Part shown: one piece after another, positions 3,207-62,897 of the stretch
How positions within the stretch are numbered: position 1 is the stretch's first letter
Layout: the number at the start of each line of letters is the position of its first letter
Assembly (NCBI GenBank): GCA_000316135.1
Contig: JH994045.1
Location: 4,666 to 68,665, forward strand
DNA length: 64,000 nucleotides
DNA from: Trachipleistophora hominis
Taxonomy: Eukaryota > Microsporidia > Pleistophoridae
Direction of reading: 5' to 3'
The notes under the pieces: generated by a model
Told to the model about the DNA's origin: nothing
Seen by the model: the letters and a program-made list of their open reading frames with translations, nothing else
Databases searched by the model: none
Program-made: the position numbers and the translations under genes

Positions 3207-3316
3207 TAGATGAAATAAATGTTTAGTTTTAGATCGTAATGATAGAATCGTTACGTTTATTACGTTCTTTCTTATTTTATATTCTTGTAGAGAATAAAGT
3301 ATTTAATGTGTTACGA

Positions 3317-27944: not shown

Positions 27945-28027
27945 AAAAGTCAGTTTAATTATCACCACATCCACGATATCCAATCAAACACACTTTTCTG
28001 GTCCGCTGGGACTAACCATGGCCTTTT
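27945..28027 (-). repeat. Family-A element, truncated copy (A4)
   Basis: On the minus strand it reads GGCCATGGTTAGTCCCAGCG, GACCAGAAAAGTGTG and GGTGATAATTAAACTGAC. It is interrupted at its 5' end by A5 in the same orientation, giving a head-to-tail pair. Confidence 0.6.
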
Positions 28028-28135
28028 TTTTATTAAAAGTTAGTTTAATTATCACCTTATAACATATCATCTAACTAAACATACTCTTCTGGTCTGCTGG
28101 GACCAACCATGGCCACCGGCCTTTGGTTCATGGAG
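28028..28135 (-). mobile_element. Family-A SINE-like element (A5)
   Basis: A nearly consensus copy: on the minus strand CATGAACCAAAGGCCGGTGG, CCATGGTTGGTCCCAGCAGA and GGTGATAATTAAACTAAC, ending in an A-rich tail that abuts A4. Confidence 0.7.
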
Positions 28136-44379: not shown

Positions 44380-44395
44380 TCGTGGTGAAGTTTTT

Positions 44396-44488
44396 TACTT
44401 CTTGTCTAACTTTATGTTTAGTTATCTACTTCATCCAACAAACGTATTCTGAGATAACCATGGACACCTGCCTTTGTTTCATGGAGGA
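44396..44488 (-). mobile_element. Family-A SINE-like element just after the tRNA endonuclease stop (A11)
   Basis: TGAAGTTTTT occurs at 44386-44395 and 44489-44498. Between them is a minus-oriented copy (CATGAAACAAAGGCAGGTGT, CCATGGTTATCTCAG). The insertion site lies six bases past the stop codon, so it may supply the gene's 3' end. Confidence 0.7.
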
Positions 44489-44498
44489 TGAAGTTTTT

Positions 44499-44899
44499 AT
44501 CGTTTGGCGGTGTTTTGGTCGTGATGAAGAAAATTAATGGACAGGGTGCGCTGTGACACGCATGATTGGTCAACGTCTGCCATATAATTTAATATGGGCC
44601 GTAAAATGTACGAATAGCGAATTTGAGCAAAAACAGCGGTTAAAGGGCGTATAAAGAGCAACGCTTAAAACTATCATACGTAAAGCAGAAAGTACTTTAT
44701 GCGCATAAACGAGTAGGATGTGATAGAAGAGCAGAATTGCACGGGGAGCTGCGTATCACATATTTCGCACAGAATGATATTATCAAGAACAAGACGCTAT
44801 TATCACCCTGCCAAACACACACACGCCAATAAGAGAAAAATCGCGAAACAATGATAAGATGTTGATCAGCAACATAATACAAAAAAGTAACACCTAAAA
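44499..44899. other. Gene-free stretch
   Basis: Nothing recognised apart from the promoter of the next gene. Confidence 0.5.
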
Positions 44900-44906
44900 T
44901 ATAAAA
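44900..44906 (+). promoter_or_regulatory. TATA box for small secreted protein 1
   Basis: TATAAAA begins 27 bases before the ATG at 44927. Confidence 0.65.
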
Positions 44907-44926
44907 GCAGACGTAAATTGACGAGG

Positions 44927-45145
44927 ATGCATATTCTCTCACTTTTATTTTCTGTCATTGCAGCACGCGAAGGAGTAGCAAAAAAGAGTCAGCTGTTTAA
45001 CCCCTTTAGTTCATGGAACCCTTTTGGCCTTAGAACACCATCACCGGCGGCAGAAATTGAAAAGGCTGCGATAAGACGAACGGCCGCTGCGAATGCAGCC
45101 GCGGCTGCCAACGGATTTGGCAGCCCATTCACAGGGTATTTCTAA
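44927..45145 (+). CDS. Small secreted PAE/Ala-rich family protein 1
   Basis: The 72-aa protein has a signal peptide (MHILSLLFSVIAA), a central stretch with NPFSSWNPFGL, and the family motif SPAAEIEKAAIRRTAAANAA, ending FGSPFTGYF. Five genes between 44.9 and 57.0 kb share this layout: signal peptide, ~20-30 polar or Gly/Pro-rich residues, [ST]PAE-like Ala-rich segment with an Arg, then a short aromatic/Gly tail. I know no named family that fits. Small size, secretion and clustering suggest a spore-wall/polar-tube component or an effector; the sequence does not decide. The start is fixed by the TATA box and signal peptide. Confidence 0.75.
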   Translation: MHILSLLFSVIAAREGVAKKSQLFNPFSSWNPFGLRTPSPAAEIEKAAIRRTAAANAAAAANGFGSPFTGYF

Positions 45146-45249
45146 AATAAAGATTTGTAAATAAAAGTAATTTTGAATAAATTTTTTTGGATTACGCATT
45201 AATGCATAAATTTTGTTTTTTACGAAGGAAAGGAGAGTTTGACGAACTT

Positions 45250-45350
45250 TTCATGTATTCATGAACCAACGGTCTATAAAGCCATATTGGGCGCTCAACG
45301 CACCAGGAGAGTTGATGTGGTGTGAGTGTAATTAACCAGACTTTCAAACG
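45250..45350 (+). repeat. Family-A element, subfamily II (A12)
   Basis: CATGAACCAACGGTCTATAA, TTGGGCGCTCAACGCACCAG and GTGTAATTAACCAGACTTTC match subfamily II. The tail is poor in A. Confidence 0.55.
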
Positions 45351-45387
45351 AGAAGAATATCTTCGTATGTTGTATGAAAGTGATACC

Positions 45388-45498
45388 ATGAACCAACGAT
45401 CGTCAAGGCCACGGTCGGCGCTCAGCACGCCTGGAGAGTTTGTTTGGTGTGTAAGGAAATGTGAGGTGTTAATTAGACGGACTTTCAAGCAAAAAAAG
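45388..45498 (+). repeat. Family-A element, subfamily II (A13)
   Basis: CATGAACCAACGATCGTCAA to CTTTCAAGCAAAAAAAG. Flanks ATCTTCGTATGTTGTAT (left, about 45357) and ATCTTCGTACGTAGTATT (right, about 45498) resemble a long, imperfect duplication. Confidence 0.6.
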
Positions 45499-46968
45499 AT
45501 CTTCGTACGTAGTATTGAAGTGGTAATTTTGGTTTCTAGGCCTAAAATTACGCTGAAATATTAATTTAAAAATTAATACAACGCTGTACAGTACAGCCCC
45601 CATTTTATTTGAAGAAACATATTTAATTAATAATTCAACAATCCGTTCTTACGTGCATAGCTCATCATTCCAGTAAACAAGGATGCTAACAACCGATAAA
45701 TCACTGCACGACAATAAACACGTAAGAGTTAAGTTCCTTGCAAAATATAAATATTTTCATAATTTTTGGTTCGTTGTGCAGTAACCCGACATATTCCTTG
45801 TTATGTACATAGAAATCGTATTGTGATAGAAAATAATAAATGCATCAATCTGTCATGGTCATCTAGAATAAAATCGAGACTGCAAAAACAAATGCATTAA
45901 CTTGGCAGGGTATCACCTGTTACAAACACTAAGGCCATAGCAAGAAAGGCTAAAACGGCAGAGCACACACTATAATGCGTAACGCAAGCAAGAATTTGTG
46001 TGTAAACTCACAGAACATTATTCCAACATAAGAACGTGGCAACACGAGATAAGGACAATCAATAGTAGCTACGATAGACTAAACAAGTCAAGCTATCAAA
46101 GAGCAGGTTGTAACCAACAAAGCTGGTATAACAGATAATCAAGTGAGATACTGCAAAATAATTTTCTTGGAAAGGAGCAGGCAACCACAATACAAAGGTC
46201 TTTTACTCAATCCTTTTTATCAAGCGCACTTAGCGCCCGGTCATCGCAATCAAAAGCATAATTCATAAAATTATAGCTCCTTCATGTCACCATTAAATAA
46301 AGTATCCTCTTTAAACAACATAAAAGAAACCATTTAATACGTACTTTGTAACGTTTCCTTCATTTACTGCGCGTCAACGTCATTGATTGTCCATGCTAAG
46401 AAATGTAAGGTTACAATATTTTTAAGTTTGTCTTGTTGGATAGCGTTCTTATCACATTATGACTCGTATATTTAATACTTTGTGATATGTTACTTAGTAA
46501 TACACACATAAAAATGTTTCAATATCAATCGCATTGAAGTGTTATAGCACCAATTTTACTGATACGAGAGAATGGAGCCATCAACATCTTAATTCACGTG
46601 TGTTGTCTTTTTGCCCGTTTTTATCGTATACAGCCAAAACATACAATGGGCATGCTGCAAAATAGATCACCAACAATCGTTAGAAAGTTAAAACATGGTA
46701 GTTCAAACAACATGCTGATTATATCGTACTTAAACGAACCGCATCTACAGTTGTTAACACTTGATACATGTTACAGGATATAAATAGATCAATAACTAAC
46801 CGGTTCTGATAACCACATTCATATGAAATGATACAGACAGTTATTTCGTGTAAACATTTTCATTTGTTTATTGTATTCCATGTCTTTTAACGTTTTGTTT
46901 TGGCCCAATGCCTTTTTTTTGTTACGGTGCGTGTATTGATTGATACTAAAACACGGGAAAATAAAGTA

Positions 46969-46974
46969 TATAAA
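46969..46974 (+). promoter_or_regulatory. TATA box for small secreted protein 2
   Basis: TATATAAA (from 46967) stands 25-27 bases before the ATG at 46994, marking that ATG as the start. Confidence 0.6.
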
Positions 46975-46993
46975 GAGATGCATACGTATTTTT

Positions 46994-47173
46994 ATGCTAG
47001 GAAAAATAATTACCATAGGCTTTGCTTTATTCACAGGTGTTTTCGCTGAACAGGAAATAAATAAGAAGGATAATTTGTATGGATATGGTGGTTATCCATT
47101 CATTGGATCGCCAGCTGCTTTGGGAACAGCTGCTGCTAGAAATGCAGCTATTGCGGCGGCCACGGGATTATAA
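46994..47173 (+). CDS. Small secreted PAE/Ala-rich family protein 2
   Basis: The 60-aa protein starts MLGKIITIGFALFTGVFA (signal peptide), continues with a short polar part and a Gly/Tyr patch (LYGYGGYPFIG), and ends with SPAALGTAAARNAAIAAA. It is the shortest family member and lacks the aromatic tail; the Ala-rich segment nearly ends the protein. The frame extends 18 codons upstream from a TTG, but the TATA box lies within that extension, so 46994 is preferred. It is on the same strand as member 1, 1.85 kb away. Confidence 0.7.
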   Translation: MLGKIITIGFALFTGVFAEQEINKKDNLYGYGGYPFIGSPAALGTAAARNAAIAAATGL

Positions 47174-47729
47174 GTAAAAATGTTTTGAAGCTGAACGTGT
47201 TCTTACACTTTTTGTAATGTTTAAGTGTTTTATTAACTTAACATTTTGTAGGTTTAATTTAAACTGCTCAGCATATTTTTAAATCATTGAGATATGCTTT
47301 TAATTCTACACGTTTTTTCAATCGTTCATTCTACGGCAAAAGATCAACACGGTACATTTGCTTTATCATCTTATTGTGTTAATTTTACAGTAATTATCTT
47401 TTTATAGAACGTAGCTAAGATTTATTTAATGTAAGACTTGTCAGTCATAAGGAGTCGATCTTTAATCAATATATAACATCATTATAATAAAAAGTTTTTT
47501 AGAATTGGTCAATTGAATGCGCATTTCAACAATTTCTTTTTAAGAAATGGTCAAGAAACTGTAAAGCATCTGTTCCACAGCATAAAAGAAATAGTTATAA
47601 CGATTGTGATATAAAACGTTAAATAACTGCTCTTATCGTTGTTTAAAGAGTATATTTTATTTGGTTATGACATGAGGGAGTAATAATTTTAGCATTTGTG
47701 ATTCAAGAGAGTTACGTTAAATGCTAGGA

Positions 47730-47832
47730 TATATTTATAAAGGGCCACTTTCGGCACTCAGTGCACCTAAATATTGTGTCAATGTATATAAAAGAATGTA
47801 GTGATAATTAAATGGGTTTTTGTGCAAAAAGT
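47730..47832 (+). repeat. Family-A element, subfamily II, diverged (A14)
   Basis: GGGCCACTTTCGGCACTCAG, then GTGATAATTAAATGGG and GTGCAAAAAG, match the body and tail of family A. Confidence 0.5.
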
Positions 47833-49214
47833 AGGTCAATAATATGTTTAAAACAATTCTACCAAAGCATGGTGAATACAACACTATAAAATGTTTTTCT
47901 CTCAATAGCATAGCGCTAAATTCGTTTTTTACAATTGTTTGTCTTAGTATACTTATTATTCATAAATAATTATTTGCAAAAAGCGATAAAATAGCGTATG
48001 TAAATTAGTGGACTAACCCTGTAAAAAAAAACAAAGTACCATTTATTATAAATTTTAAAGTAATAACGACGTATGTAAAAATTTTAATTCAAAACTATCA
48101 ACTCTTACATAATCATCTGATTCAGCCAAAAACATAATTTACAAATATTTTCTTTTAAATCAACAGCTCTTAGTTGATAATGTGGCGATTTTTCAGCCAA
48201 CCACGCGAATTATAAAAACCATTTACAAATTTTTCACCAATTCTTGTTATGGAAACGAAATTATGATGTATTAATTATTTGTTTGTAGTGATTGAATGCA
48301 CGGCTGCTTTAGAATACTTCTTTAAAGCTTATATTATAAGTTTAAAGTCATAAAGAAACGCATTCCATCGTGAATGCACCCATTTTTATTCCTAGACAAT
48401 ATATAATTGTGTATAGGATGGAATCGCCGAGTTGACTAACAAGATATTGTGAACCAGAAGAGTATGTAAGAGATAATGTGGCGAATAAATGAAAATACTT
48501 TCTGTAAAGCATGATATTCTAATGGTCTTTTATCAATGAAAATTGCTACTCGATTGATTAATGGCTATAAAATGTTATAACTAAGCTATGAAATCAATCA
48601 AGATGCAATATAAAAGATAGATAACGTCAATGAAAAACTAATAGTTAGAAAACAAAATTAATGACGATAATAAGTACCAATCATGAGATGTATCTCGTGT
48701 AATTACCGATGTGTGCGAATGTTAGGCTCAATGAACCGATCTTTGCAGCACTTTCGTAAAGGAATCATGGATAAGTAACCAAAGAATATTGACCAAGTTA
48801 ACGGAAGAGTTGTAATATTTTAATAACTCACTTTCTAAAAACATACACATCACGAGTTTATTCTTCATCCTGCTTTCATTAAGGCTATAATACTGTACAC
48901 TGTGCCAATAAGTATCCCTATTATAGGTCGGTATGGCATTATAATGTTTGTTATTTATCGCCATAGGAGTAGCACAATAGTTGTTTTGTGTTAATTAATG
49001 ATCAGCTTTCCTAATACTAAAGACTTGTTATTTATGTCAGTGGTAATTTATAGTATGATTATTTAGTTTTAAAGATTGATGTCACTGGTCTGCCACCATA
49101 ATGTTGTGCCAGACTTATAGAATATAGGTTTATAAGTGAAAGAAATTTATTTAGCGAAGTATATCGTTCATCATTTACCTTAAATACTCTATTTCCCATT
49201 CATGCTGATCGCCT

Positions 49215-49297
49215 CAAAGTATCATTAAAAAACCATAAATCACTCTCCAGTGCGCTAGCAAATACCATTGCTTTGCCAATCTTTGGTTCAAGGAGAT
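49215..49297 (-). repeat. Family-A element, subfamily II, partial (A15)
   Basis: On the minus strand CTTGAACCAAAGATTGGC, then ATGGTATTTGCTAGCGCACT and GGAGAGTGATTTATGG. Confidence 0.5.
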
Positions 49298-49371
49298 ACA
49301 TCAACATTTTCTATTGGCGTAGCGGTCGATACATGGCGCTCGGGTAAATCTTCTCGAAATGCAACGCAAGA

Positions 49372-49487
49372 CCATGAACCAAAGGCTGAACAGGGCATGG
49401 TAGGTGCTAACATACCAGGAGAAGCATATTACCCAGGTATTAGGTGGAATGCTGAATAATTAATTAAATATGTTTCTTAAAAAAAGC
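49372..49487 (+). mobile_element. Family-A SINE-like element with target-site duplication (A16)
   Basis: The 116-bp copy runs from CCATGAACCAAAGGCTGAAC to an A-rich end. Flanks TGCAACGCAAGA (49360-49371) and TGCAACGTGAGA (49488-49499) form a 12-bp duplication with two mismatches. The 63-codon frame crossing it is an artefact. Confidence 0.65.
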
Positions 49488-49744
49488 TGCAACGTGAGAA
49501 AAACACCTCAGATACTGCGCTGACACGTTTTTGTGCGTTGCCTTTTGTTTAGAAGCAAATACGAGCTTTCGAACGAAATTAAATTCAGTTTTTTAGTTAC
49601 TATCATGTTTTGATAAACCGACTAGCTCTGAGCGATTGTAATCGAGTTTCAATTTAATACGTTAATATATAAAAAGCTTAATGTGATTATAACAAAATTG
49701 AATTTGTTGTACTCGTGCAATGCACGCTACGCATATTCATTCAG

Positions 49745-49855
49745 TTTGCTACTGAGAACGATTTTCTTAAAAAGCGTTCTTATTTATTCGTCTCTCACTA
49801 TATAGATTCTTTTGATCCGCTGTGACTAACCTCATAGCTATTAGCCTTTGGCTTG
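49745..49855 (-). repeat. Family-A element, subfamily I, diverged (A17)
   Basis: CTTTTGATCCGCTGTGACTA and GCTATTAGCCTTTGGCTTG match inverted family A. Confidence 0.45.
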
Positions 49856-50088
49856 TGCATCATCGAGAATCGATGATCGACACGGCTATGGTGTATGGTA
49901 ATCCGCCAAAGATTTACGTATGAAAGGTTTGATGTAGCGATGTGAGGTGTAACTGAAGTAGTAAATAAACTTAACTCAGTTGAAAAAATTAATACACCTA
50001 GAAATGTTAACCACAACAACCAGAATCAGTAAAAATTGTTTGAGAACTAAAAATTTACTTCATTTCAAACAAACTATCGATGAAACAT

Positions 50089-50325
50089 CTAAGCTAGATA
50101 TTTTGACGATACATATGAGTACCTTGAAGCAGATGATACTGCTGAGTTTCTAGCTGCCTTTTCGGCCGCAACCTCGGCAGGACTAAAAGTAGAGGGCAAA
50201 AATGGGCTAAAAGGCGTAATAAGTTCGTTGCTTTTCATAGGCATTTTGTCTGTACCATCAATAGCACATACAACACACGAAAGTACGGTTGTTAGAGAAC
50301 ATAAAACTAAGTGTTTTACACGCAT
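50089..50325 (-). CDS. Small secreted PAE/Ala-rich family protein 3
   Basis: The 78-aa protein has a signal peptide with three Cys (MRVKHLVLCSLTTVLSCVVC), a Pro/Phe/Ser-rich centre (ITPFSPFLPSTF), then SPAEVAAEKAARNSAVSSAS and a Tyr/Ser tail (YSYVSSKYLA). It is the first of three members on the minus strand, converging on members 1 and 2. The motif here gives the clearest consensus. TATA spacing supports the start. Confidence 0.78.
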   Translation of the reverse strand: MRVKHLVLCSLTTVLSCVVCAIDGTDKMPMKSNELITPFSPFLPSTFSPAEVAAEKAARNSAVSSASRYSYVSSKYLA

Positions 50326-50346
50326 GTGGATGGAATGATGGTTCTA

Positions 50347-50352
50347 TTTATA
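50347..50352 (-). promoter_or_regulatory. TATA box for small secreted protein 3
   Basis: On the minus strand TATAAA begins 27 bases before the ATG at 50325. Confidence 0.6.
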
Positions 50353-52118
50353 TCCAGAATGATACATTTTTTGTTTTAATAGTAATCTATTATCTAAGTT
50401 ATAGATTTTAAACTATTGGTTTGTCGTATATGATATTTCTGCGTGCTTAGTTGTGGTCGCGATAATCGATGTTAGGACTATGATTCAATCGTTAATGCGT
50501 TTATGATACGATGTGGAATGTTGATTCGTGGCATTTCGAAAATATCTTTTGAATTAAGAGAGCAGTATACAGCTTAATAAATGTTATTTAATAATATGTA
50601 CGGAGCCATCATCATATGTTACAATATTTTAATTAGTAATACATGCAAAAAGTAGCTAAGAATATAAAATGTTTCTATTTATTTTCTCAGATGGAGAACA
50701 ACAATTTTGTTAAATGTGCCGTAGTAGTGTGGAAGTGTGGGAAATGAATTTAATTTGATTAATAATAACAAATTTGTTAAATTTTGTATTTTTATCAGGC
50801 GCTATGTTTCAATACGTGCTTGTATTTTCCTGAAAACCCATAAAAATCTTAAATAGTGACGAGAATGGATCTTTTATTTGTGTTTCAACCCAACGTAAAT
50901 ATTATCCACCTCGATGGTTTTATTCCCGAGAAGTGCTCAAAAATAATGATGCTGCGCACGACTACAAAACGATAGATTAAAATTATAGTTTTTTGGGCTT
51001 ACAAGTAGCCAGCGATCTATTTTTTTAAATCTGATAACTAAACCGATGTTGTATTTATAATAAATTTCATTAAACGGTACTTTCAGTCAGTTATATTTTC
51101 GAACAGATATACGTGAGAATGCTACCCACTCTATCATTTAGGTATTAGTTGAGCGGGATCTGTTTTTAAATAAAGTAAACGTTTTACTGTTGTTGCTATT
51201 GAAGTGCTGTTTATTGTAAATCAAAAAAATGTTGTGAAAAATAAAAGAGTTTGAGTCAAAAAAAAATTAAAATACTATTTTTGAAAAAATCTCGCTAGTT
51301 TTAAGATGGATGTCGTGAAAACCATAGATAAAAAGTAGATGGTGATAAAATTATATGATTTTCTCATAATATTCAAATATATTGTAGTATAAGCGCTATT
51401 TTAATTCTGTTCGTGAAAAGAAAATATTTCATTAAATATTTGAAGTAAAAAGCGCAGAAATACACTTTATTGAGATGAGTAAATTAATTATAACAATATA
51501 ACATGCAAATCATCTAAATTACGAAAGTATTATTTAATTATATAAAATAACATGCTATTTAGTGGATAAAATGGACAAGTTGCATGTATTAACAATTATT
51601 CGACCGATACAACTCGTTATTTAGCATTACCTCGTATTTCATTTAAGATTGTGTTTATCGTACGATAGAAGACGCTTCTTATTATGACATAGATGAAAAA
51701 TTATTAAGCGATATGCAAGTTGATCATTTATTTGATTACTTGTATAGGTAATAGAAAGATTTGTATGGTAATCTTTAGGACAGTGGTTACTTTTATTTTT
51801 TATAGTTTTGTTCAGGAAACTATTCAATAGTACCAACGCACGGGAATAACTTATGATTTATGTTTTTCTTAACAAAAAATCAACTAATACTAAAGTTTAA
51901 TAAACTAAACAGTCGACTATGTTTACTTGATTGAATGTCTGTTATATTGTAGTAACATAAGTATATGATGGACTGAACACTATTTAAACGCAATAATACG
52001 TTGAGACTGAATAATACGGTTCAGAAACACTTTCAAGTAGATGCAAAAATAAATTAAATGCCTATTAAAGCTTATACTAAAGAATATTATGCCGTTTTTA
52101 GTAATTAACGAATAGTAT
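50353..52118. other. Gene-free AT-rich stretch
   Basis: A TATAAA at 50661 stands 28 bases before an ATG (50689) that opens only 18 codons; this may be a dead promoter. A possible gene remnant at 51541-51755 is listed separately. Confidence 0.4.
51541..51755 (+). pseudogene. Possible decayed small secreted gene
   Basis: TATAAA at 51541 precedes an ATG at 51571 by 30 bases. The 17-codon start (MDKLHVLTIIRPIQLVI) resembles a signal peptide. About 25 bases after its stop, a different phase reads CVYRTIEDASYYDIDEKLL and further natural-looking residues to a stop near 51750. This would fit a frameshifted small gene. Evidence is slight. Confidence 0.25.
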
Positions 52119-52508
52119 TGCTGCTGGTGCACTATTTAGTCTGTAAAATAGAAAACTGGGTTGATTTCTATCCGATAAGATAAATCTTTCGTTGTTTTTC
52201 ATTTCGTTTCATGTCGATCACTCCTTCGAAATCAATACTCTTCATTAAAGATTAAAAATTAATCTTTGAGCCGCATTGGTGTTGTTACTAAATATTTTTG
52301 ATAAAAGATTGCTGAGAGGATTTAGGGATATGAAGAGCGAATAACAATATAAAATTTTTTATTTGCGCTTAAAATACAATACTAAGATATGTCCTATATT
52401 TATGGAGTAGCGGAAGTGAATAAAGATACTTTTAGTTAAGAAAACAAGCAATAACATTTAGTATTTTTTTGGAGTTATCCAATCGAGTACGAATTGTTTT
52501 TATAAATA
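52119..52508 (+). repeat. Family-B repeat, diverged (B13)
   Basis: TGCTGCTGGTGCACTATTTA, TAAAAATTAATCTTTGAGCC and GATTGCTGAGAGGATT, with an end near CCAATCGAGTACGAATTGTT. Confidence 0.55.
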
Positions 52509-52573
52509 CCGAAATAATATGACATTACAAGCACAACCATCCCACAGGAAATCATTCATACAAATTCATTTAA

Positions 52574-52801
52574 TTACGCACCATAACTAGTGGACATTCG
52601 CCTTGAAAATCGATAACTAGCAGCCCGACTGCCAGCGGCAGCCGCAGCTACTTCGGCAGGTGTCGGTTCAACACTTGGTGTCGATGGAACACCTCCCCAA
52701 AAGCCATCAAAGAACAAATTGCTATTTTTCACGTCATTGGCTGCCTCTTTATTGCAGAATACATATGTAAATACCAAGAAAATAGAAGTTAACAAATTCA
52801 T
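52574..52801 (-). CDS. Small secreted PAE/Ala-rich family protein 4
   Basis: The 75-aa protein starts MNLLTSIFLVFTYVFC (signal peptide), followed by an Asn/Lys-rich part, a Gly/Phe patch (FFDGFWGGVPSTPS), TPAEVAAAAAGSRAASYRFS and a basic/Tyr tail (RRMSTSYGA). The MNLL start and the Cys near the cleavage site are shared with member 5, its closest neighbour, suggesting a more recent duplication between these two. TATA spacing supports the start. Confidence 0.78.
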   Translation of the reverse strand: MNLLTSIFLVFTYVFCNKEAANDVKNSNLFFDGFWGGVPSTPSVEPTPAEVAAAAAGSRAASYRFSRRMSTSYGA

Positions 52802-52823
52802 AGGACGATTTTACTCCTCTCAT

Positions 52824-52829
52824 TTTATA
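52824..52829 (-). promoter_or_regulatory. TATA box for small secreted protein 4
   Basis: On the minus strand TATAAA begins 28 bases before the ATG at 52801. Confidence 0.6.
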
Positions 52830-53619
52830 GTTTTTTCAAAAACTAGAGTTTCATAGTTATGTGATTAGATATTCTAATGAATGTGTGATTTGAAACGCAG
52901 AGTCTAAGCTTAATTGGAAAATGAACAATGATATGTTATAAAATCAATAGATAAATGGTTGATGAGAAGATGGGGCTATGACGATATGATTGAATGATAT
53001 AAGTGGTGAACTGCTAATTGATAAATAATATAGAATGAGAAACAAATTCAAGAAACTTGATTCGAGGAAATAAATAGTAAAAAATTGGAAATTTGATTAT
53101 TTCCAAACTACAATCATTGATACGATGATATCGAAGAAGTATCTTTATAAATACCATTGGCGAGCTTAATTATGGCGCCATTTCATTTATGGCACATGAC
53201 CAAACAGAAAATTAAGCTCAGATAAATTTATAGAAATAAAAAATCTTTATTGTTCAATATTGTAGACTAGTAAAAATATATTTATGAGGTGATAATTGGT
53301 GTTGGTTTGAAACACAGAATATACGAAAGTATTCTGTACAAAATATCACAAATTTTCGGGAAATATAGCATTTACAGAGAATTGTATCGCACCATAATAG
53401 ATTTTATACATCCAATAATGATGGTAAACGATGACATCAACTTTATATAATCACAGCCGGTATTAGGTTAATATACAAATATAAATTATGATAATTATTT
53501 ACGAAAAAGTCTTGTTTGGGAATAATCAGAGCACACAAATGTAATCAAAGATGAGTCGAATAAACATCATAGATAATCAACATTGACTAAAATATGATGT
53601 TTCATAGTATCAATTTAGT
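52830..53619. other. Gene-free AT-rich stretch
   Basis: Nothing recognised. Confidence 0.5.
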
Positions 53620-54250
53620 AGAATGCCTACCGCCTTTGTCAATAAAAAAATAAATTTTCGTAGTTTCAATATTACTTTTTTCCTTCATTGAATTCATGTT
53701 TTGTTATTATCACTTTAGAACAGTTTGTATTTGCCAGTAGAGGTTAAAAAATCAATTCTTAGTACGCATCAGTAACTTCTCAAAACATTAAACGTAGAAG
53801 ATAATTGAGAACACATCGCAACATAGAATTACATAACCAAACGATATTTTATATTCGTCACCAAAATAAAAGAATTTTTTAAAACAACTATTGAGTTTGC
53901 AGATTGTCTTCTTATTAACATAACAAGCTGTTCTATTACATTTTTCAAATAAAAATTACAATTTGTATGCATTCAAGAAACGTATTCTTTCTTTGTTTTC
54001 AATTTTACTTTATATCAGCCATTTTTAGGTTGTTTACTTTTCGATAAGGGTACAAAAATAAAAATCCATTCTGAATTAACTTTGCGTTCCTTTGTTATAT
54101 GTTAAGTAAAAGACCATTGAATGTGCCTCTAAACACAAGAATTGCGCAAAATAGTATAATTTTTCGTTCATTATAAGCATATGATATTTTTTGATTCTTC
54201 GATAGAACTGACCAATCAACTTTTGAGTTATCTTTCTTTTAATACTGATG
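53620..54250 (+). repeat. Two family-B repeats in tandem, diverged (B14, B15)
   Basis: AAAAAATCAATTCTTAGTAC then TTGCAGATTGTCTTCTTATT (ending near 53918) is one copy. CAAGCTGTTCTATTACATTT (about 53928) to GACCAATCAACTTTTGAG then TTATCTTTCTTTTA is the next. The minus frame at 54076-54282 lies inside. Confidence 0.55.
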
Positions 54251-54474
54251 AATATTGATGACAAAGTATATAAATTTACCATTCAATTCAATTAATCATC
54301 TAATCGACCATATAATACAGCACATTATCCTCGATAATTACTGAAAACCTCGTGATGCAGTAATTTATAAAATATGCAATCCTGCCACACAGAAAATCAT
54401 TTGACGCCAATTCCGAGGCTAAACTCACGAATAATTTTGATTATTGTGAAGTAGCCTGAACATAATTCTAACAG

Positions 54475-55792
54475 AAGAGTTGAAAACAAAAATACTAAAG
54501 GACAATAAATAATTTATAGACATACGAACAGGCATACAAACACCTGTTTAACAGGAATATAAAGCCTAGTCATGGATTCAAACAACTTATGGGCCTAATC
54601 AACCTCACTTAGTGTATTAATGAAGCATTACACCATTGCTATCTAACATGGACGACAACAATATTGTCAATCATTTTAATGAATTAAAGAAGTCCTTAGT
54701 CAATCTTATAAAAACTAATAGGCATTAGTTGTTGAGAAGTGTTTTAAATAACAGTGAGCACAAACTTTCGAATAACGATATTAGTATGATGTCCCAGGAA
54801 TATATGGAATGTGTATGATGTAAAACTGTCAATGAGTATATAGAACAACTGAAAGAAGTTGTGGTTAAATATCTCTTTCTAAATTAAAAAGCAAATTTAA
54901 AATTGATTTCATATTGAATAGACATTGATACATGCCACTGGTTATTTGAACTCAAAAAATGTAGATGAAGTTAGTATCGTAAACAATTAATATTTTTTTC
55001 GGCATATTCAAAGTATTTCGTTTGAAATTATTGTGAATATGATTATAAATACCATCTTAAAGGAAACCTAATGAATTTTACCTAATAATTTGCTTTGCAT
55101 TCTTTTAGAAACATGAATTCCGAAAAATACAAAATATCAATGTTTTTATTTGAGAGATTGCCTAGTAGTATACCTTAATTCAAACATAGAAGAATCGCGC
55201 TTTAATTGATTTTATCGTATACTTTACCAGTTGAATAGAAAATGCCTTCTCACAAATTCATAGCTTTGAATAATGAAATTATCGTATCAAAAAACAGCCA
55301 TAAGCTAGTTTTTATCGATCGTTTGTTGGAGATGTCTGATTGAAGAATCTTTTTTTTGTGTTTCATATCGTAAATCAGCATATATATGTACATATTCCTT
55401 TCACTGTCTAAATACATTTATGTAGATATTGTTATTTAAAAATATTCTTTTTACAATAATAAGGAACTAAAAATCATAATATTTATTTTTACATTTTCAA
55501 ATTTTTGTCGTCGATTTTCTTTTTCAGAGGATTGGTGATAAAGACATAGAACTGAAACATTGATTCAACAGCGTAAGTACCAATAAGATTGTTATTAAAA
55601 CTATGCTTCATTGAACAAGTTTATTTAAATGTGAACCAGGAGAAAGTATTGAGTGAATTTCCAATCATGAAACATTTAAAACTTTCCGAAATTATGTAAA
55701 ATAAATCATACATGTACCCATTGATAAGTTAAATGAGAGCCATCCATGTCTCACGGTGTTTAAAGCGCATGCTATTTTTGACTTAAAATACA
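54475..55792 (+). pseudogene. Decayed paralogue of the 526-aa protein gene
   Basis: Collinear similarity to 15308-16888 runs through this stretch despite many stops and shifts. The segment at 54530-54610 matches 15520-15620 at base level. NNIVNHFNELKKSL (from 54658) parallels DIEIVEHFTTFKKL; SQEYMECV then NEYIEQLKE (54796-54855) parallels EEYEKC..NGYIAQLNK; GYLNSKNVDEVS (about 54940) parallels CYLNPENADEVT; and ALNNEIIVSKNSH (about 55265) parallels VLNNEIATSQD. Near the end TVFKAHAIF (about 55760) matches LLKAHAIY. It retains full length but is non-functional, so the family was once larger. Confidence 0.8.
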
Positions 55793-56005
55793 TGTACGAA
55801 ATTTCATTTTACCATTTTGTTTCATAACTTCGAGAAACTTTACTCTATGAACAGCTTCATTAACTTTTAATGAATAGACGCACGATATCAGATGGTCTAC
55901 TATCGTTAATATATTATGCTTTGAAATCCAATGGATGATAACAAACTTATTGTAGCATAGTGGAAACAATGTAGCAAATAAAATAGTACATATGCCAACA
56001 AGCAT
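55772..56005 (-). CDS. Possible small secreted protein, unsupported promoter
   Basis: From the ATG at 56005 the 77-aa frame starts MLVGICTILFATLFPLCYNK, which looks like a signal peptide, and continues with ordinary composition to QNGKMKFRTCILSQK. It overlaps the 3' end of the decayed paralogue on the other strand by ~20 bp. There is no TATA box at 25-28 bases and no C-run, so the frame could be chance. No PAE motif is present. Confidence 0.3.
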   Translation of the reverse strand: MLVGICTILFATLFPLCYNKFVIIHWISKHNILTIVDHLISCVYSLKVNEAVHRVKFLEVMKQNGKMKFRTCILSQK

Positions 56006-56008
56006 CAA

Positions 56009-56795
56009 ACATCAATAATATCACTTTTGTGGCAGCATTAAATCCTCTAAATAATTTTCTCTCATGTTTAAATTACATCACACCTATTATTTAAAAGTAT
56101 TTTCTACAAAGTTAACACTCCCATAATAAGTTAGAATTTTCATAACATACGAAATATTCTAAGTTGGTGTTAGGAATGATTAAGTGTATGTGACCTATTT
56201 GCAGACGTATTGTATTGATAGATGCGTAAACTTTTAATTACTTGCCCATCGAAGTTGATAAGATGTAAATCTTATAGAAATAAAATTCTGATAAGATATT
56301 ACGCTATTTATAGACCGTTAAAACCATGCATGTTGTTAAAGATTGTTATAGATGTTTATTTGCACCACAAATTTATTTTTAACGTTGTTCATTCAAAATA
56401 AAATAACGACTTGTGACAGTTTATTTTTAATAAAGAAATCTTGAACTTACAACTATTTTAACCTACGGTGGAGAACAGTGTAGTAAGAAAATATTTTATC
56501 GTTTTTAGTTTAAAATTTAATATTGTTGAAGTAGAATGATAAAAATAGAAAACAAAAAAAGGAACTAACGGCCTGTAAACGTGCAGGTTGAACACTTTAC
56601 CACAAAACTCATATGAAATTATCACGTATACATAATTATACTATGTTTAGAAATTTCACCCTAAAAATGTTTTACCATCTATACACCGTCATATTAGATG
56701 ACACAATCACTTTTACAGCAAAAATATATTTAATGTCAAAAATAGCATCATCTTCATAATTTGCTGCTTTGTTAAATAATTAGTTTTAATTTATC
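56009..56795. other. Gene-free stretch
   Basis: Nothing recognised. Confidence 0.5.
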
Positions 56796-57002
56796 TCACA
56801 ATCCGACTCCATATCCAAACCTACCACCCATAGGATAGAATGGGCTTCTAGTGGCAGCTACTGCAGCAGCCTCAGCGGGCGTTTGTGGATCTAAGGGATT
56901 ACCATGAGTACCAGCACCATACAACAACTTATTGATTTTGGCATTCTCGCCCACACACAATATTACTGGAGTACCTAAAATAAAAAAACGTAATAAATTC
57001 AT
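56796..57002 (-). CDS. Small secreted PAE/Ala-rich family protein 5
   Basis: The 68-aa protein starts MNLLRFFILGTPVILCVG (signal peptide), continues with ENAKINKLLYGAGTHGNPLD, then TPAEAAAVAATRSPFYPMGG and a Gly/aromatic tail (RFGYGVGL). Like member 4 it begins MNLL and has a Cys near the predicted cleavage site. The Gly-Tyr tail resembles the central GYGGYPF of member 2. It closes the five-gene cluster. TATA spacing supports the start. Confidence 0.78.
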   Translation of the reverse strand: MNLLRFFILGTPVILCVGENAKINKLLYGAGTHGNPLDPQTPAEAAAVAATRSPFYPMGGRFGYGVGL

Positions 57003-57023
57003 AATAAGTCAGACAATTATTTG

Positions 57024-57031
57024 TTTATATA
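57024..57031 (-). promoter_or_regulatory. TATA box for small secreted protein 5
   Basis: On the minus strand TATATAAA ends 22 and begins 29 bases before the ATG at 57002; its TATAAA core begins at 27. Confidence 0.6.
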
Positions 57032-57305
57032 CTTTTTTAACAAACGATTGTTACGCGTGAGTGAGATGTAACATGTATGAGACGAATGGCTTGTGTGATG
57101 ATCTAGATTGTGTGTTAATGATGATTTGTGCAGCAAGAAAATAGCATAACACTGGACAAAAGAGATGACGGGATTGGCAGCCGCGTTTCACGTCGTTTTG
57201 ATGCGAAACACATGAAGGGCGGTTATTGGTAACATACATCCTCAAGGTAAAATGAGATGCTATATATAATGTGTTTAGAATGTTATTCCCTCGTAAATTT
57301 TTACT

Positions 57306-57387
57306 CTTTTTAATAAAAATATATTTATTTATCACCACTGCACACTTTAACACACTCTTCTGGTCAGCCGGGACAGACCATGCCCGC
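57306..57387 (-). mobile_element. Family-A SINE-like element with target-site duplication (A18)
   Basis: Flanked by CGTAAATTTTTACT (57292-57305) and CGTAAGTTTTACT (57388-57400), which differ by one mismatch and one base of length. The copy is minus-oriented and lacks the extreme 5' end (starts GGCGGGCATGGTCTGTCCCG). Confidence 0.65.
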
Positions 57388-57400
57388 CGTAAGTTTTACT

Positions 57401-59574
57401 TATTATGTCAATATATTTGCATTTAATTATCGTATTATAAGGAAATTCAATTTAATTATAAAAAGATTTATGGCATATTTTGATTTGACAGGTACAATAA
57501 AACAAACCCTTACAATTTAGTAGGGTGATTAATACGAATAATTGCAGATTACGAAAAACCACGGTTATTAATAATTACTAGTAACAGTGACTACAAGAAT
57601 GAATCTATCAAGATATTGTTACCGCAGCTTATGCCTCGACCATGAGTGGAAATAAACACTTAAATGGTTATTACGTAATAATAACGAAAGCTGTTGGTTA
57701 AATAATTAAATAGAATAGATCATAACAGTGTTAAAATGTTTAATATGCTGATTAGAAATTATTTTGTAAATTACAGCTAGTAATAATAAAATATTGTTAG
57801 ATTTATGTTGTGTATTGCTGATGGTAAAATATATACACATGTCAAAAAATCAATATTATTAACTTCTACGTATAAGCAAAATTCTTTTGTTCTAAAACCT
57901 GAACAATTTGATCATAAATAAGTATTTTAGCAGGACTAACGGGGTAAAAATACAAAAATCAATTTTATCTTGTATTATACTTTTGTTTATACTCAACATA
58001 TGAATAACAATATTTATTATATTAGCACAGAATACAGTAATATATTACAGGTCAACTACTAAACTGCTGATATTGGCCATAAATCTGAGCTGCTTGCATT
58101 TTACGTTCCAAGCCAATTAAAAAGGTTTAATTACAATGTTATTAGTTTCAATTCAAGTATTTAAAAGTTTAATATCTTAATTTTTGTGTATAAGTATAAA
58201 TACACCTGGTTCTGCTAAGAATATCGATATTTTACACGTTATTTGCGTGAAATAATTGGCTGTTTATTTATATTTTTCACATATTAAAATTCACCTGAAA
58301 TTTCTTTTCCAACAGTTTCATCACATCCAATCATCAATACAAATACGTTATTTGCTCCTGTCAAGATTACTACTAATTTCTTTTTCACTGATCGTATTGA
58401 ATGCATAGTAAGAAAATATATAAAGACACTTACCTCGAACTCATTGAATATTACGGGTTAGGAGGCCATTACAATATTTTCAATCGTAATATTCAATGGC
58501 CCGCATCTATTATTATTGTAATTTATCATTTTTCCCAATTTTAAATAATATACAGCCCAAATTTTCTAATATACACCTATTTAAAGCCGTACAAACGTAT
58601 TACTGTTCAGCAAACAGTCGTTATGTAGGAATAGTTACAGCTTGCCTAAAGAAATTTACAAACCCATAATAAATATATTTTTATCAACAAGATGTCTAAA
58701 ATTCACCACGGTATCTACGGTAAGATTTGTCTATCATGAAGGAAAAGTTTTACTTAATATATAAAATCTATTAAATACACCAACACGTAAAAAATGTTCT
58801 ATAAAATGTTTCATCAATGATGAAAATTCTTAGATAGAATAGAAAAATTTTTCATTGCTGTCTTATTTTTTACCAATTTATTACAATCAAAGAAGTTGTA
58901 CGCAAAAATCAAATAATAATCCATCTATTACTTTAAGTGCTGACAACTCAAAATATAAATAATTATTAAGTAATAACTGTTTACTGTTAGGATTGTATTC
59001 TCTTATAAATTATCCGATAAAGTACCTCATGATAGTAATTACGACGAATATTGGAAGATGTTCACTTTTTTGCTATCAGCATAGGAACATAATTGTTATA
59101 AAATAATAGTACACACTGTAATTAAATTATTTTCAATTACCTTTGATTTAATACACCGTTACTGACTTATTCCAGCATTACCTTTCCTTCCCTAAATCTA
59201 CTTGGCATGTCATCATGAGGACAATGTACGATATATTTATTGTTTATAAGCACTACTTCTGTTCCGTATTAAAATAGAGCAGTTTGAATTTTAAAGACCA
59301 GCCCAAGCCAAATAACAGATACGCACCGTAAAACCTAAATGTGCCACACAAGGTAGATAAATAGAAAAGGAACAATAACATTAACATAGTATCGTATCAT
59401 ACAACAACATTATTGATCATTATGGTAACTAAAGATATATTTCAAAAATTTATCATCGACATATTCACACGGCATTTAAAAAGAACGATCGTGTTTTTTT
59501 CCCGGTTTTAAGTTACTTTTACTCCGATGTTGTTAATGTAGTGATGTTTATAACTAAACATCACCAACTTTTTT
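57401..59574. other. Gene-free AT-rich desert
   Basis: Over 2 kb without any frame above 60 codons or a recognised repeat. Confidence 0.55.
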
Positions 59575-59675
59575 CCAACTAAAAGCATCTTTACTCATTT
59601 TCTACAATGTCATGACACATACAGACACTCTTCTGGTTTATTGATACTAATTGTAGCTGCTGGCCTCTGGTCCAT
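59575..59675 (-). repeat. Family-A element, diverged (A19)
   Basis: CAGACACTCTTCTGGTTTAT and GTAGCTGCTGGCCTCTGGTC match inverted subfamily I. Confidence 0.5.
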
Positions 59676-60003
59676 AATATTTCATCGCCAAAAACCGCAA
59701 CACATTTCTATTTTTTGTTGCTCAAAAACATAAATAAGTAAAAAAATTTTGCCCCTGCGACGTCTGTACTTATCAGAATCATTTGTACAGTTCTTTCGCA
59801 TTCCAAGTTCGTCTGAACTTGTACCCGACAGGGCCGGGATGACGAAAAGTGGTATACTGCAGCACGGACGATGACAGATGAATTGTCTTTTGCGGTATCT
59901 TTCTGACTGGTCTTGTAAATAAACTGTTTAGTTATTTATTTTTAAATTCTTGCTTTTTTACCTGTTTCTATGTGATTGGCGGTTATATTTCCAGTTTTAT
60001 CAT

Positions 60004-60165
60004 TTATTCAAATGCGTTACCAGTCGATGGCAGACCTTCTGTAGAATCGACATTAATCGCTGCAAATTTTTGTGGTACCAATTTTCTTTTAACGGTTATT
60101 TTGTTGCAAATCAATTTGTTTGCTTTACTGCGTTGCTTTCCTTCACAATGAGTTCTTCTGGGCAT
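60004..60165 (-). CDS. Possible short basic protein or gene remnant
   Basis: On the minus strand an ATG at 60165 opens 53 codons (MPRRTHCEGKQRSKANKLIC ... ending TGNAFE) in a patch that is less AT-rich than its surroundings. The frame continues upstream for about 20 codons without an ATG. Composition is natural and basic, but there is no promoter signal and no recognised family. It may be the end of a lost gene. Confidence 0.25.
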   Translation of the reverse strand: MPRRTHCEGKQRSKANKLICNKITVKRKLVPQKFAAINVDSTEGLPSTGNAFE

Positions 60166-60199
60166 ACCGCGCACATTGGCATCTAAGTTCTTGTAGCCC

Positions 60200-62029
60200 A
60201 GATTAATACGAAGACTTTTAGCTTAATTACGAATGGTTCATACGTTATACGTGTATCCACAATTTAGACAGTTACATGTTATTTAGTTTTATGTATTTTC
60301 TATTGGTTGTAAAATAATGAAATATAAAAACAAAGATTTTTTAGGCTTAGCATACGTTGTACATCCATTTAAAAATCATTTACTCGTTCAAATGTTTCCC
60401 CAACAAACTATTAATCGTTTCTTTAAATCATTCTTCGCTAGTGATGTTAACATTAAATCATATATTTCCGTCGAGCGTTAACTAAATTATTTAATATGCA
60501 TATGTTTTAAACAAAGCTCTTTCAATACGAACGAATATGCACGTGTGATTGCCTTTTAATTAGTAGCATCACCATAACTCCTAATGTTATTGATATTCCA
60601 GCATAAGCACAATGAGTATCAGGTGTTCATGTTAAAAGTAAAACTACGATCTGAAACAAGATACTTCAAAGAATAATTCAAAACAAATTCACAGTAAAAA
60701 CTGCTGATTTCATGCGCTTGATCTTCAAAATACAGGTAATAAAACACGTTGATTCATATTTTCACTTCATATATGAATGCTATTAATCAAATATACACAG
60801 TAATTTCATTTATTAATATAAAAATTATTAAATTACTAACAATCGCGAAATTCGTGTATCCTGTCATCGGCTCAAACAATATTAACAAACATTACATCAG
60901 AACACCAACATACTCTACCACATCATGACTACCTCCGTTAAAATCGAATACATAGTGTCTAACAGGCCATTCGTAAAAAAATGATAATATTTACATCATA
61001 TAATCACCATTATAAAACATATTTTGTGACACTACCACTATATTTTGAAGTGTAGATGAAAATGTATGTTAATTTATTTTGTGATATTTCTTGTTTGTAT
61101 CCGATCGATAATAGATCTGCAGAAATACGGGTTAGGACATACAGAGGAAGGTGAAATAACGAATAAACTGAAGGGCGATAAAAATGTTACCATGAAATCG
61201 TTTGAATTTTGAATAAAAAATGATGAATAACACGCTTTCTGGATAATTAACGTATTTTTGTTGATAAATATTATACTTTTGTCTTAATATTAATTTAATT
61301 ATTAAATTAATACAGGGTATTATATAGCCGTTACATTCGTTATATGATTATCGATCAGCTAATATTAATTCAGCTATTAATTTTAAGGTTAATTACATTT
61401 TTCATTATACCATGCTGTTTCATTTTCTTACTTCTTTTTCCCTCGTTTATTTGTAAATCATATTTTACGTTGACGTTTCATCTGTATTATTTTTGCAACG
61501 ATAACCGGTAATTAAAATGCCCAATGAACAAAAATTTTACCTTTTCAATATGAGTTACTGGATGATAAAGGACTAGTGGTTCGTTAATGTTACAATTGTT
61601 GATAAACAATACAGTTTTCTACGAGTTGTATATTTCAGTAAAAAATTATATTTTGGTTAATGAACAGTTGTTATTAATACTAATAAAAACGCTTATGTCG
61701 GTTAGTAGCGCACAAAATTTAACTTTGCAAGCTATTGCTAATTAAATAACCAGCGTTATCAGCAACATTATTAATTTGCTACCATATTTGATTACATATG
61801 TTAAACATATTACTAATTCTATTTCTACTGATATTTTCAATACATTAATAATTGTAACTTTTATCTTTACCAATGCATTTATTAACATTTTTTAATACTA
61901 TGTACACTAATAAAAAATCTTTTGTGTATACGGCAGTATCAATACAATATTAATCACGTATTATCAATTAAGAGATATTAAGCCCCATTGTTATGATTTG
62001 ATACTCCATAAAAACGTTTTATTTATTCC
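60200..62029. other. Gene-free AT-rich desert
   Basis: No frame, repeat or promoter signal recognised. Confidence 0.5.
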
Positions 62030-62040
62030 TGTACACCTTA

Positions 62041-62155
62041 TTTTTTTGAAGAAACATGTTTAATCAATAATTCAACCTTCTACAGAACACCTATTTAACA
62101 TACTTTTCCTGGTATATTAGCACGTATCATGGCCCGTTCAACCTTTTGTTCATGA
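62041..62155 (-). mobile_element. Family-A SINE-like element with perfect 11-bp duplication (A20)
   Basis: TGTACACCTTA occurs at 62030-62040 and 62156-62166. The copy between is minus-oriented, with a T run (A tail) at 62041-62047 and the 5' end CATGAACAAAAGGTTGAACG on the minus strand. Confidence 0.75.
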
Positions 62156-62567
62156 TGTACACCTTACAACTTATACTTTTTTGGTCTACCAGGATCGGCT
62201 ATAATCATCGTTTTCTAATTCATGAACTATGTTATTTATTAAAAAAAGTACAGATGAGGTAATTCTTGCCATTCTGATATAACACAGGGCACACGCTATT
62301 ATTTAAAAAATATTGATAACGTATCTTAACCATTATCAGTACAATATTACGTTTTTATACTTCAAAAATGATGTAATACTGTGTAATAAGATATGAAAAC
62401 TCCGAATCTAATACTCATTCAAATCTTCTCTTCAACCAAAACCGCTGTTTTATTCTACACCGCACCAAAAACACTAACTGGTAATTTATGTAAATTTGGC
62501 TATATCATCATACTATCATTTTAGAAAAAAGTCTATTTATGTAACAAATACCAAAATTTACGTGTTA

Positions 62568-62795
62568 ATGAGCTTTTATAGCATGTTAAGGACCGGCTAT
62601 GATCTTGATTGCCTTTTTCTTCAAAAGAATAATTTGATGTTCAGAGTTGCTTGGATAGTATTCGAGTATTTCAGATATTATAACGACTACAAATGCAAAA
62701 ACGCGTTATATGAGATCCTTCTCTATTATTTAATGGCACATTTCATACTCTCTAAAATATACAACAATAATAATAGCAAGTCTATGATCCAATAA
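62568..62795 (+). pseudogene. Possible C-terminal remnant of the 526-aa family
   Basis: A 75-codon frame from the ATG at 62568 contains SMLRTGYDLDCLFLQKNNLM then AWIVFEYFRYY. The spacing S.L[KR]...L.[KR]...LM...A.....F.R.Y resembles the end of the 526-aa protein (SRLKK..., LMLLKAHAIYKFLRCY). The frame is open upstream without an ATG, and there is no promoter signal. The resemblance is weak and could be chance. Confidence 0.25.
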
Positions 62796-62869
62796 CAAAG
62801 TATGTTTTCTTGCCATTTAAACTTTAAAACGCGTTTAAAACGTAATCAAGCCTAAAACACAGGTAAACG

Positions 62870-62876
62870 TATAAAA
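62870..62876 (+). promoter_or_regulatory. TATA box for the 211-aa gene
   Basis: TATAAAA begins 28 bases before the ATG at 62898. Confidence 0.65.
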
Positions 62877-62897
62877 GAATCGGCGACGGTAAACAAA

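What the first reader, a model, noticed from the sequence alone, without database searches (positions are those of the whole stretch)
44927..57002. Cluster of five small secreted proteins sharing a [ST]PAE-type Ala-rich motif
Genes at 44927, 46994 (plus) and 50325, 52801, 57002 (minus) encode 60-78-aa proteins with the same layout: signal peptide, short Gly/Pro/aromatic stretch, SPAAEIEKAA / SPAALGTAAA / SPAEVAAEKAA / TPAEVAAAAA / TPAEAAAVAA, an Arg within a few residues, then (except in member 2) a short aromatic or Gly tail. Overall identity is so low that a search with a single member could miss the others. Each has a TATA box 25-28 bases from its ATG. Fast divergence around a fixed motif, clustering and secretion suggest an undescribed family of effectors or structural spore proteins.
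Basis: partly seen in the sequence, partly recalled or inferred. Interest (0 to 1): 0.85.

Follow-up and report, generated by a model that had tools for sequence, protein, structure and literature searches.

The report
Cluster of tiny secreted microsporidian peptides
A parasite that is very probably a microsporidian carries, in one cluster, at least nine very small secreted-looking protein genes that share one layout and one promoter style, and other unnamed sequences hold recognisable counterparts, so this looks like a real family that we did not find described, whose job is still unknown.

Summary
The five ORFs exist as described (59-78 aa), each with TATAAA 25-28 nt before its ATG. The family is larger: four more genes of the same layout lie within 3.3 kb past the window end on the same contig, three found without the motif, one by profile without the promoter. 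On this contig 10 of 73 small hydrophobic-start ORFs have such a box, nine of them this family; in 52 other loci 0 of 140 (129 distinct) do. Six database proteins are counterparts of members 1, 2, 3, 4, 8. From [ST]P to the end they are 84-100% identical in four of five, against 45-67% in the signal region; member 1 is the reverse. So 'fast divergence around a fixed motif' is not borne out; both member-1 counterparts lack [ST]PA. [ST]P plus E/D/Q and alanines fits a helix N-cap; two low-confidence models start a helix there. Best reading: secreted peptides whose capped Ala-rich helix plus tail is the working module, somewhat more likely a stable structural set than fast-evolving effectors. Family well supported; module-level homology weak for some members; function open.

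The parts
44927..45145 (+). member 1, 72 aa small secreted-type protein gene; module SPAAEIEKAAIRRTAAANAAAAANGFGSPFTGYF
   Evidence: counterparts P0004, P0005
44900..44905 (+). TATAAA, 27 nt before the ATG of member 1
46994..47173 (+). member 2, 59 aa; module SPAALGTAAARNAAIAAATGL
   Evidence: counterpart P0008
46969..46974 (+). TATAAA, 25 nt before the ATG of member 2
50089..50325 (-). member 3, 78 aa; module SPAEVAAEKAARNSAVSSASRYSYVSSKYLA
   Evidence: counterpart P0006
50347..50352 (-). TATAAA, 27 nt before the ATG of member 3
52574..52801 (-). member 4, 75 aa; module TPAEVAAAAAGSRAASYRFSRRMSTSYGA
   Evidence: counterpart P0007
52824..52829 (-). TATAAA, 28 nt before the ATG of member 4
56796..57002 (-). 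member 5, 68 aa; module TPAEAAAVAATRSPFYPMGGRFGYGVGL; no counterpart found
57024..57029 (-). TATAAA, 27 nt before the ATG of member 5
44380..62897 (.). gene-poor island: no ATG-started ORF of 100 aa or more. GC of C95:49118-67562 (window 44453-62897) outside the family's coding regions is 0.300; family coding regions in the window 0.41-0.48. The cluster continues beyond the window with members 6-9 at window-equivalent 64675-64875, 65311-65508, 66106-66285, 67016-67222, all + (L034:741-941, 1377-1574, 2172-2351, 3082-3288)

Best explanation
Shown: a cluster of nine genes for 59-78 aa proteins on one contig of a very probably microsporidian genome. Each has a hydrophobic N-terminal segment that looks like a signal peptide, a short Lys/Arg-containing segment after it (such as KKSQLF, KKDNLYG, KNSNLF, KGEHVYE), a linker that is often rich in Gly, Pro or aromatic residues, and a C-terminal module that begins with [ST]P and runs into an Ala-containing stretch and a short tail. 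Each is preceded by TATAAA (CATAAA in member 9) 25-28 nt before the ATG. Inferred: one family, arisen by old local duplication; transcription starts at or within a few bases of the ATG; the signal peptide is removed and a peptide of roughly 35-55 aa is released to the secretory route; [ST]P-x-[EDQ], where present, caps the N-terminus of a short Ala-rich helix; the helix plus Gly/aromatic tail is the working module. Committed guess at function: the members are small structural or assembly peptides of a surface layer (spore wall, polar tube or the parasite-host interface), each kept for its own place, rather than a fast-evolving effector arsenal. The family claim alone I hold at about 0.9; the confidence given here is for the whole statement including function.
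For: Nine members with one promoter spacing and layout. Two recoveries that did not use all the defining features: m6-m8 by hydrophobic start plus TATA alone; m9 as best or second-best ORF outside the known members in each of 8 full-length leave-one-out profile searches of 662 ORFs, and best in each of 8 with the first 18 residues removed, then seen to have CATAAA at -28. m9 matches m6 at E = 4.9e-6 in an own-genome search. Controls: 0 of 140 (129 distinct) outside against 10 of 73 on the contig; simulations. Six counterpart proteins, E 1.7e-16 to 2.5e-3, with aligned C-terminal ends; module 84-100% identical in 4 of 5 with the signal region at 45-67%, which suggests selection to keep the module. 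Counterparts P0005 and P0006 are listed with a longest contig of 30514 bases each, P0007 and P0008 with 11483 each, which hints at linkage there too. AlphaFold models start a helix at the motif (m1 40-63, m3 49-67), at low confidence. Leaders under 7 nt in E. cuniculi mRNAs (PMC2803860, passages) fit a box at -25 to -28 from the ATG. Counterparts without seen expansion fit a structural set better than the lineage-specific expansions described for host-exposed families (PMC5423893, passages).
Against: No transcript or peptide. Signal peptides judged by hydrophobicity only. Much of the paralogue similarity comes from the signal region: with the first 18 residues removed only m5 keeps E < 0.01 (8.3e-4), m2, m3 and m8 lie at 0.065-0.17, and m1, m4, m6, m7 at 1.9-13; full-length, m7 and m8 fail leave-one-out (E 0.29, 0.72). 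Member 1 shows the opposite conservation pattern (signal region 18/18 and 17/18, module 25/34), and the linker of member 4 is poorly kept (9/22 with 5 gaps), so its whole secreted part is no better conserved than its signal region (34/51 against 16/24). No counterpart found for m5, m6, m7; none was sought for m9 (one search scored only the 7989 candidates sharing most words). The distance of the relative or relatives is uncalibrated, so conservation may partly reflect closeness; one-to-one kinship is read from alignments, no tree was made. Models are poor (pLDDT 56.5 and 60.9). Members 1, 2 (SPAA) and 9 (SPSM) lack the acidic or amide residue of the capping pattern. A clade-restricted, signal-bearing family in a gene-poor region is also what host-exposed proteins look like.
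Confidence: 0.44

Rival explanations
1. A family of host-exposed effector peptides: secreted into the host cell, with the Ala-rich helix and tail binding host targets, encoded in a gene-poor region that favours turnover.
For: Signal peptide plus clade restriction is the profile of microsporidian host-exposed proteins (PMC5423893, passages; PMC3749934, passages); the database searches returned relatives from one unnamed source only; gene-poor island; strong paralogue divergence (14-33% to member 3, counterpart excluded).
Against: The C-terminal module is more conserved than the signal region in 4 of 5 counterpart comparisons; no species-specific expansion was seen, unlike the large families in PMC5423893.
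Confidence: 0.35
2. Not one family: unrelated short secreted proteins that converged on Ala/Gly-rich composition and a helix N-cap, next to each other by chance or because of a shared regulatory region.
For: Paralogue similarity is weak once the first 18 residues are removed; [ST]P-x-E is a general helix-capping pattern (recalled).
Against: Shared order of parts, similar spacing between the basic segment and [ST]P (15-22 residues) and shared promoter spacing in nine neighbours; m9-m6 E = 4.9e-6; m9 recovered by profile at up to E = 5.6e-8; 0 of 140 (129 distinct) small hydrophobic-start ORFs elsewhere have the box.
Confidence: 0.08
3. Mostly spurious ORFs or decayed leftovers in an intergenic region.
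For: No expression data; gene-poor, AT-rich stretch; no Pfam match for any of the nine.
Against: Five of the nine have counterparts with aligned starts (P0008 has an N-terminal extension) and C-terminal ends; coding GC 0.39-0.48 against 0.30 in the island; TATA statistics.
Confidence: 0.03
4. Secreted signalling or antimicrobial-type peptides, processed further after secretion and active on host or competing microbes.
For: Small size, net charge of +2 to +4 from the basic segment on in 7 of 9, short predicted helix.
Against: m8 is at -5 and m6 at 0, although m8 is the best conserved (36 of 37 residues from the basic segment on); I see no shared dibasic site and no cysteine framework in the sequences.
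Confidence: 0.1

Closest known systems
Microsporidian large, clade-specific host-exposed gene families (NemLGF families and others; PMC5423893, passages)
   Same: Signal-type N-termini, restricted distribution, several paralogues, no known domain
   Different: Members here are under 80 aa, nine were found (definition there: at least 10 in one genome), counterparts look conserved and no expansion per species was seen
Ricin-B-lectin-like clustered proteins of microsporidia (PMC3749934, abstract and passages)
   Same: Secreted type, clustered by duplication
   Different: No Pfam domain in any of the nine; different composition
Newly predicted small CDSs of Encephalitozoon (25-84 aa; PMC4589312, abstract and passages)
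   Same: Very short genes that standard annotation misses, recognised with help of upstream signals and conservation
   Different: Only one of those was predicted to have a signal peptide; the passages seen do not describe a clustered family
T. hominis / V. culicis-specific families enriched in signal peptides (PMC4654818, passages)
   Same: Lineage-specific, signal-bearing, function unknown
   Different: No named source appeared among the hits here; not compared directly
Polar tube and spore wall proteins (PTPs, SWPs; search listing only)
   Same: Secreted; structural role as proposed here
   Different: No sequence relation tested; known ones are larger (recalled)

Membership tests
Microsporidian large gene family as defined in PMC5423893 | At least 10 homologous members in one genome | tested here: inconclusive
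[quoted passage not shown]
   All nine have hydrophobic N-termini, but no SignalP and no genome-wide rate
Microsporidian large gene family as defined in PMC5423893 | Genus- or species-specific with lineage-specific expansion | tested here: inconclusive
   Relatives only from one unnamed source; no expansion seen, but few sequences
Ricin-B-lectin-like proteins | Ricin B lectin domain | tested here: not met
   0 Pfam families at E <= 1 for all nine
LRR secreted families | Leucine-rich repeats | tested here: not met
   0 Pfam families at E <= 1 for all nine; no repeats visible in the sequences
Fungal hydrophobins | Eight-cysteine pattern in a small secreted protein (recalled) | tested here: not met
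   From the basic segment on, only m7 has a cysteine, one (sequences)
Polar tube / spore wall proteins | Location in polar tube or spore wall | not testable with these tools
   Needs spore proteomics or antibodies
This family (proposed here) | [TC]ATAAA at 24-29 before ATG, hydrophobic start, [ST]P at residues 36-56, under 100 aa | tested here: met
   9 of 9; the rule was partly drawn from these same members
   Holds for m1-m5; m6 TPVQ, m7 TPIQ, m8 SPAD, m9 SPSM; absent from P0004 and P0005

The most novel reading that the evidence does not exclude
A multi-component peptide coat system: nine or more tiny secreted peptides with conserved counterparts, co-regulated by strong TATA promoters with near-zero leaders, that assemble through N-capped Ala-rich helices and Gly/aromatic tails into a microsporidian surface layer (spore wall or polar tube), missed until now because each gene is under 80 codons and too divergent for single-sequence searches.
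Probability: 0.25. Interest if true: 0.75.

Novelty: new member of a known kind. Interest (0 to 1): 0.55.

Why it matters
Lineage-specific secreted proteins are a large and little understood part of microsporidian genomes, and very short genes are easily missed in annotation (PMC4589312, abstract and passages). This locus shows that a promoter rule ([TC]ATAAA 24-29 nt before ATG) plus a hydrophobic start picks out a family on one contig with little help from homology, and that counterparts elsewhere keep the C-terminal module. If the peptides prove to be spore or polar-tube components they would give new markers and a simple model for layer assembly; if host-exposed, a compact effector set.

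Tried and rejected
Considered and dropped: (1) the motif as a processing site: I see no shared dibasic or cleavage pattern. (2) Small ORFs as first exons of larger genes: counterparts end at aligned positions. (3) Known domains: no Pfam match for any of the nine; no PDB match for m3 at E <= 10 (the others not tried). (4) Fold search of the two models: not run, models too poor. (5) Members on other contigs: motif patterns gave 13, 10 and 30 places; the only ORFs of the family type in the loci around them lie on C95. The control used 52 of the 58 loci outside C95: six (L010-L014, L016), with masked stretches, dropped out of my script's filter; they had been scanned (TATAAA only) with no hit. The 140 ORFs and 159,187 bases count overlapping loci twice; distinct are 129 ORFs and about 145 kb. 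These loci were picked by motif, TATA or family matches, not at random. (7) dN/dS: no DNA for the relatives was at hand. (8) The 1138-aa window protein, tried as a yardstick of relatedness, found only itself, so the relatives' distance stays unknown.

Literature: the listings of searches (25 of 323 papers shown; 0 papers; 20 of 30; 2 of 2; 12 of 20) showed no paper that I could recognise as describing such a family; the library holds open-licence PMC papers only. Papers seen as passages: PMC2803860, PMC4654818, PMC4589312, PMC3749934, PMC5423893, PMC3879972, PMC13174016 (the last not used); the rest only as search listings.
Full report
What was checked. The window lies on contig C95 (92,476 bases) of an unnamed 5.5-Mb assembly in 119 contigs, as C95:4666-68665. 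Each has TATAAA 25-28 nt before its ATG; 45 of 3648 ATGs on the contig have TATAAA at 24-29. The stretch 44380-62897 has no ATG-started ORF of 100 aa or more, so the five are the only convincing genes I found there; the left neighbour at 44068-44379 carries a tRNA intron endonuclease domain. The organism is very probably microsporidian: its uS7 matches PDB entries 7qca and 6zu5 best, which I recall as microsporidian ribosomes. The species was not identified, and the microsporidian SSU rRNA model and ribosomal L15e gave no match in the assembly.

The family is larger. A scan for ORFs with a hydrophobic start and a TATA box, without any use of the motif, found three more just past the window end, L034:741-941, 1377-1574 and 2172-2351; all three carry [ST]P followed by an Ala-containing stretch at the same place (TPVQEAA, TPIQAAT, SPADAVA). 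A leave-one-out profile test over 662 ORFs then brought up a ninth, C95:71633-71884. Among ORFs that were not known members it ranked first in 7 of 8 full-length runs and second in the other, and first in 8 of 8 runs without the first 18 residues. Its likely start is C95:71681, with CATAAA 28 nt upstream. It shares the ending NAGMF with member 6, and an own-genome search with it returned member 6 at E = 4.9e-6. So nine genes lie in 22.3 kb, in three blocks by strand (two plus, three minus, four plus).

Chance and controls. In 60 simulated contigs the count of 55-85-aa ORFs with hydrophobic start and TATAAA was 0.22 on average, at most 2, and none had the motif; observed 8 and 8. In 52 of the 58 fetched loci outside C95, 0 of 140 small hydrophobic-start ORFs (129 distinct, about 145 kb distinct sequence) had [TC]ATAAA at 24-29; on C95 10 of 73 had, nine of them the family and one a 99-aa ORF at window 35807-36106 that does not share the layout. 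The six loci left out had been scanned for TATAAA without a hit. The loci were not a random sample. TATA-bearing ORFs hold [ST]P at residues 36-56 in 9 of 10, the others in 28 of 193; the motif rule came from five of the nine, so only the added members are independent. Parts of C95 and of the assembly read N, so more members may exist.

Limits of the homology claim. Full-length, held-out members 1-6 are recovered at E 2.6e-6 to 8.2e-3, with only member 9 ever ranking above them; members 7 and 8 are not (E 0.29 and 0.72, each below member 9 and one unrelated ORF). With the first 18 residues removed, member 5 stays at 8.3e-4, members 2, 3 and 8 at 0.065-0.17, and members 1, 4, 6, 7 at 1.9-13; of these last, members 4 and 7 still rank next after member 9, member 6 ranks far down. 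So paralogue kinship rests on the sum of layout, signal region, promoter, position and the m6-m9 link, not on the module sequence alone. All nine have no Pfam match at E <= 1.

Relatives. A profile of the five found P0004-P0008 (only the 7989 candidates sharing most words were scored) and a profile of members 5-8 found P0010, all from one source code (lgn) with no names; the other rows were the window's own proteins. They pair with members 1 (two), 3, 4, 2 and 8. From [ST]P to the end, identity is 25/34 (m1, both), 19/21 (m2), 26/31 (m3), 25/29 (m4), 19/19 (m8); before the basic segment it is 18/18 and 17/18 (m1), 13/22 (m2), 13/29 (m3), 16/24 (m4), 13/22 (m8); the linker between is 12/16 and 15/20, 12/14, 11/16, 9/22 and 17/18 in the same order. 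Thus in four of five the C-terminal module is better kept than the signal region; in member 1 the reverse holds, and member 4's linker is variable. Both m1 counterparts lack [ST]PA. P0005 and P0006 are listed with a longest contig of 30,514 bases each and P0007 and P0008 with 11,483 each, which suggests linkage but was not seen. No counterpart of members 5, 6, 7 was found; member 9 was not searched. How far the relative or relatives are from this species is not known.

How it may work. [ST] at the N-cap, P at N1 and E, D or Q at N3 is a known way to start a helix (recalled), and two AlphaFold runs begin a helix at that place (m1 40-63; m3 49-67), at low confidence; member 9 (SPSM) and members 1 and 2 (SPAA) do not have the acidic or amide residue there. 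E. cuniculi mRNAs have leaders under 7 nt (PMC2803860, passages), though that species mostly uses other upstream signals; a TATA box 25-28 nt before the ATG fits a start of transcription at the ATG. The rest is inference: signal removal, release of a 35-55-aa peptide, helix plus tail as working part. Between a structural set and host-exposed effectors I lean to the former because the counterparts look conserved and no expansion was seen, whereas described host-exposed families show species-specific expansion (PMC5423893, passages); the lean is slight.

Novelty. Five paper searches showed no such family in their listings. The kind, lineage-specific secreted families of microsporidia, is well known (PMC3879972, PMC3749934, PMC5423893, passages); this family is new within it as far as these searches go, and unusual in size, promoter uniformity and conserved counterparts.

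Noticed in passing
window 4019-4450 +, 19284-19937 +, 26559-27203 -, 35807-36106 -, 62898-63533 +; L035:6489-7295 +: TATAAA 27-28 nt before the ATG also at other secreted-looking genes, while Argonaute, the Rpb3-like gene and most ORFs of 150 aa or more on the contig (17 of 23 in the listing) lack it: the box may mark a regulated secretome class. Against: a membrane-type ORF (21134-21826 -) has it and some secreted-looking ORFs further along the contig lack it.
   Followed up: partly
window 101-2404 +: Argonaute (Piwi, PAZ, ArgoN, ArgoMid): this lineage may keep RNA interference.
   Followed up: no
window 28413-31829 -: 1138-aa ORF with no Pfam match and no relative but itself in the protein database search.
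   Followed up: partly
window 21134-21859 - and 24463-25137 +: Two membrane-type proteins of 241 and 224 aa that look alike by eye; possible local duplicates.
   Followed up: no
window 27935-28114 and about 57341-57390: A repeat unit containing CACACTCTTCTGGTC..GC.GGGAC seen in a tandem array and again singly inside the gene-poor island (by eye): a possible dispersed repeat.
   Followed up: no
whole assembly: Microsporidian SSU rRNA (RF02542) and ribosomal protein L15e gave no match in the assembly, so it may be incomplete or the first look may have missed them.
   Followed up: no
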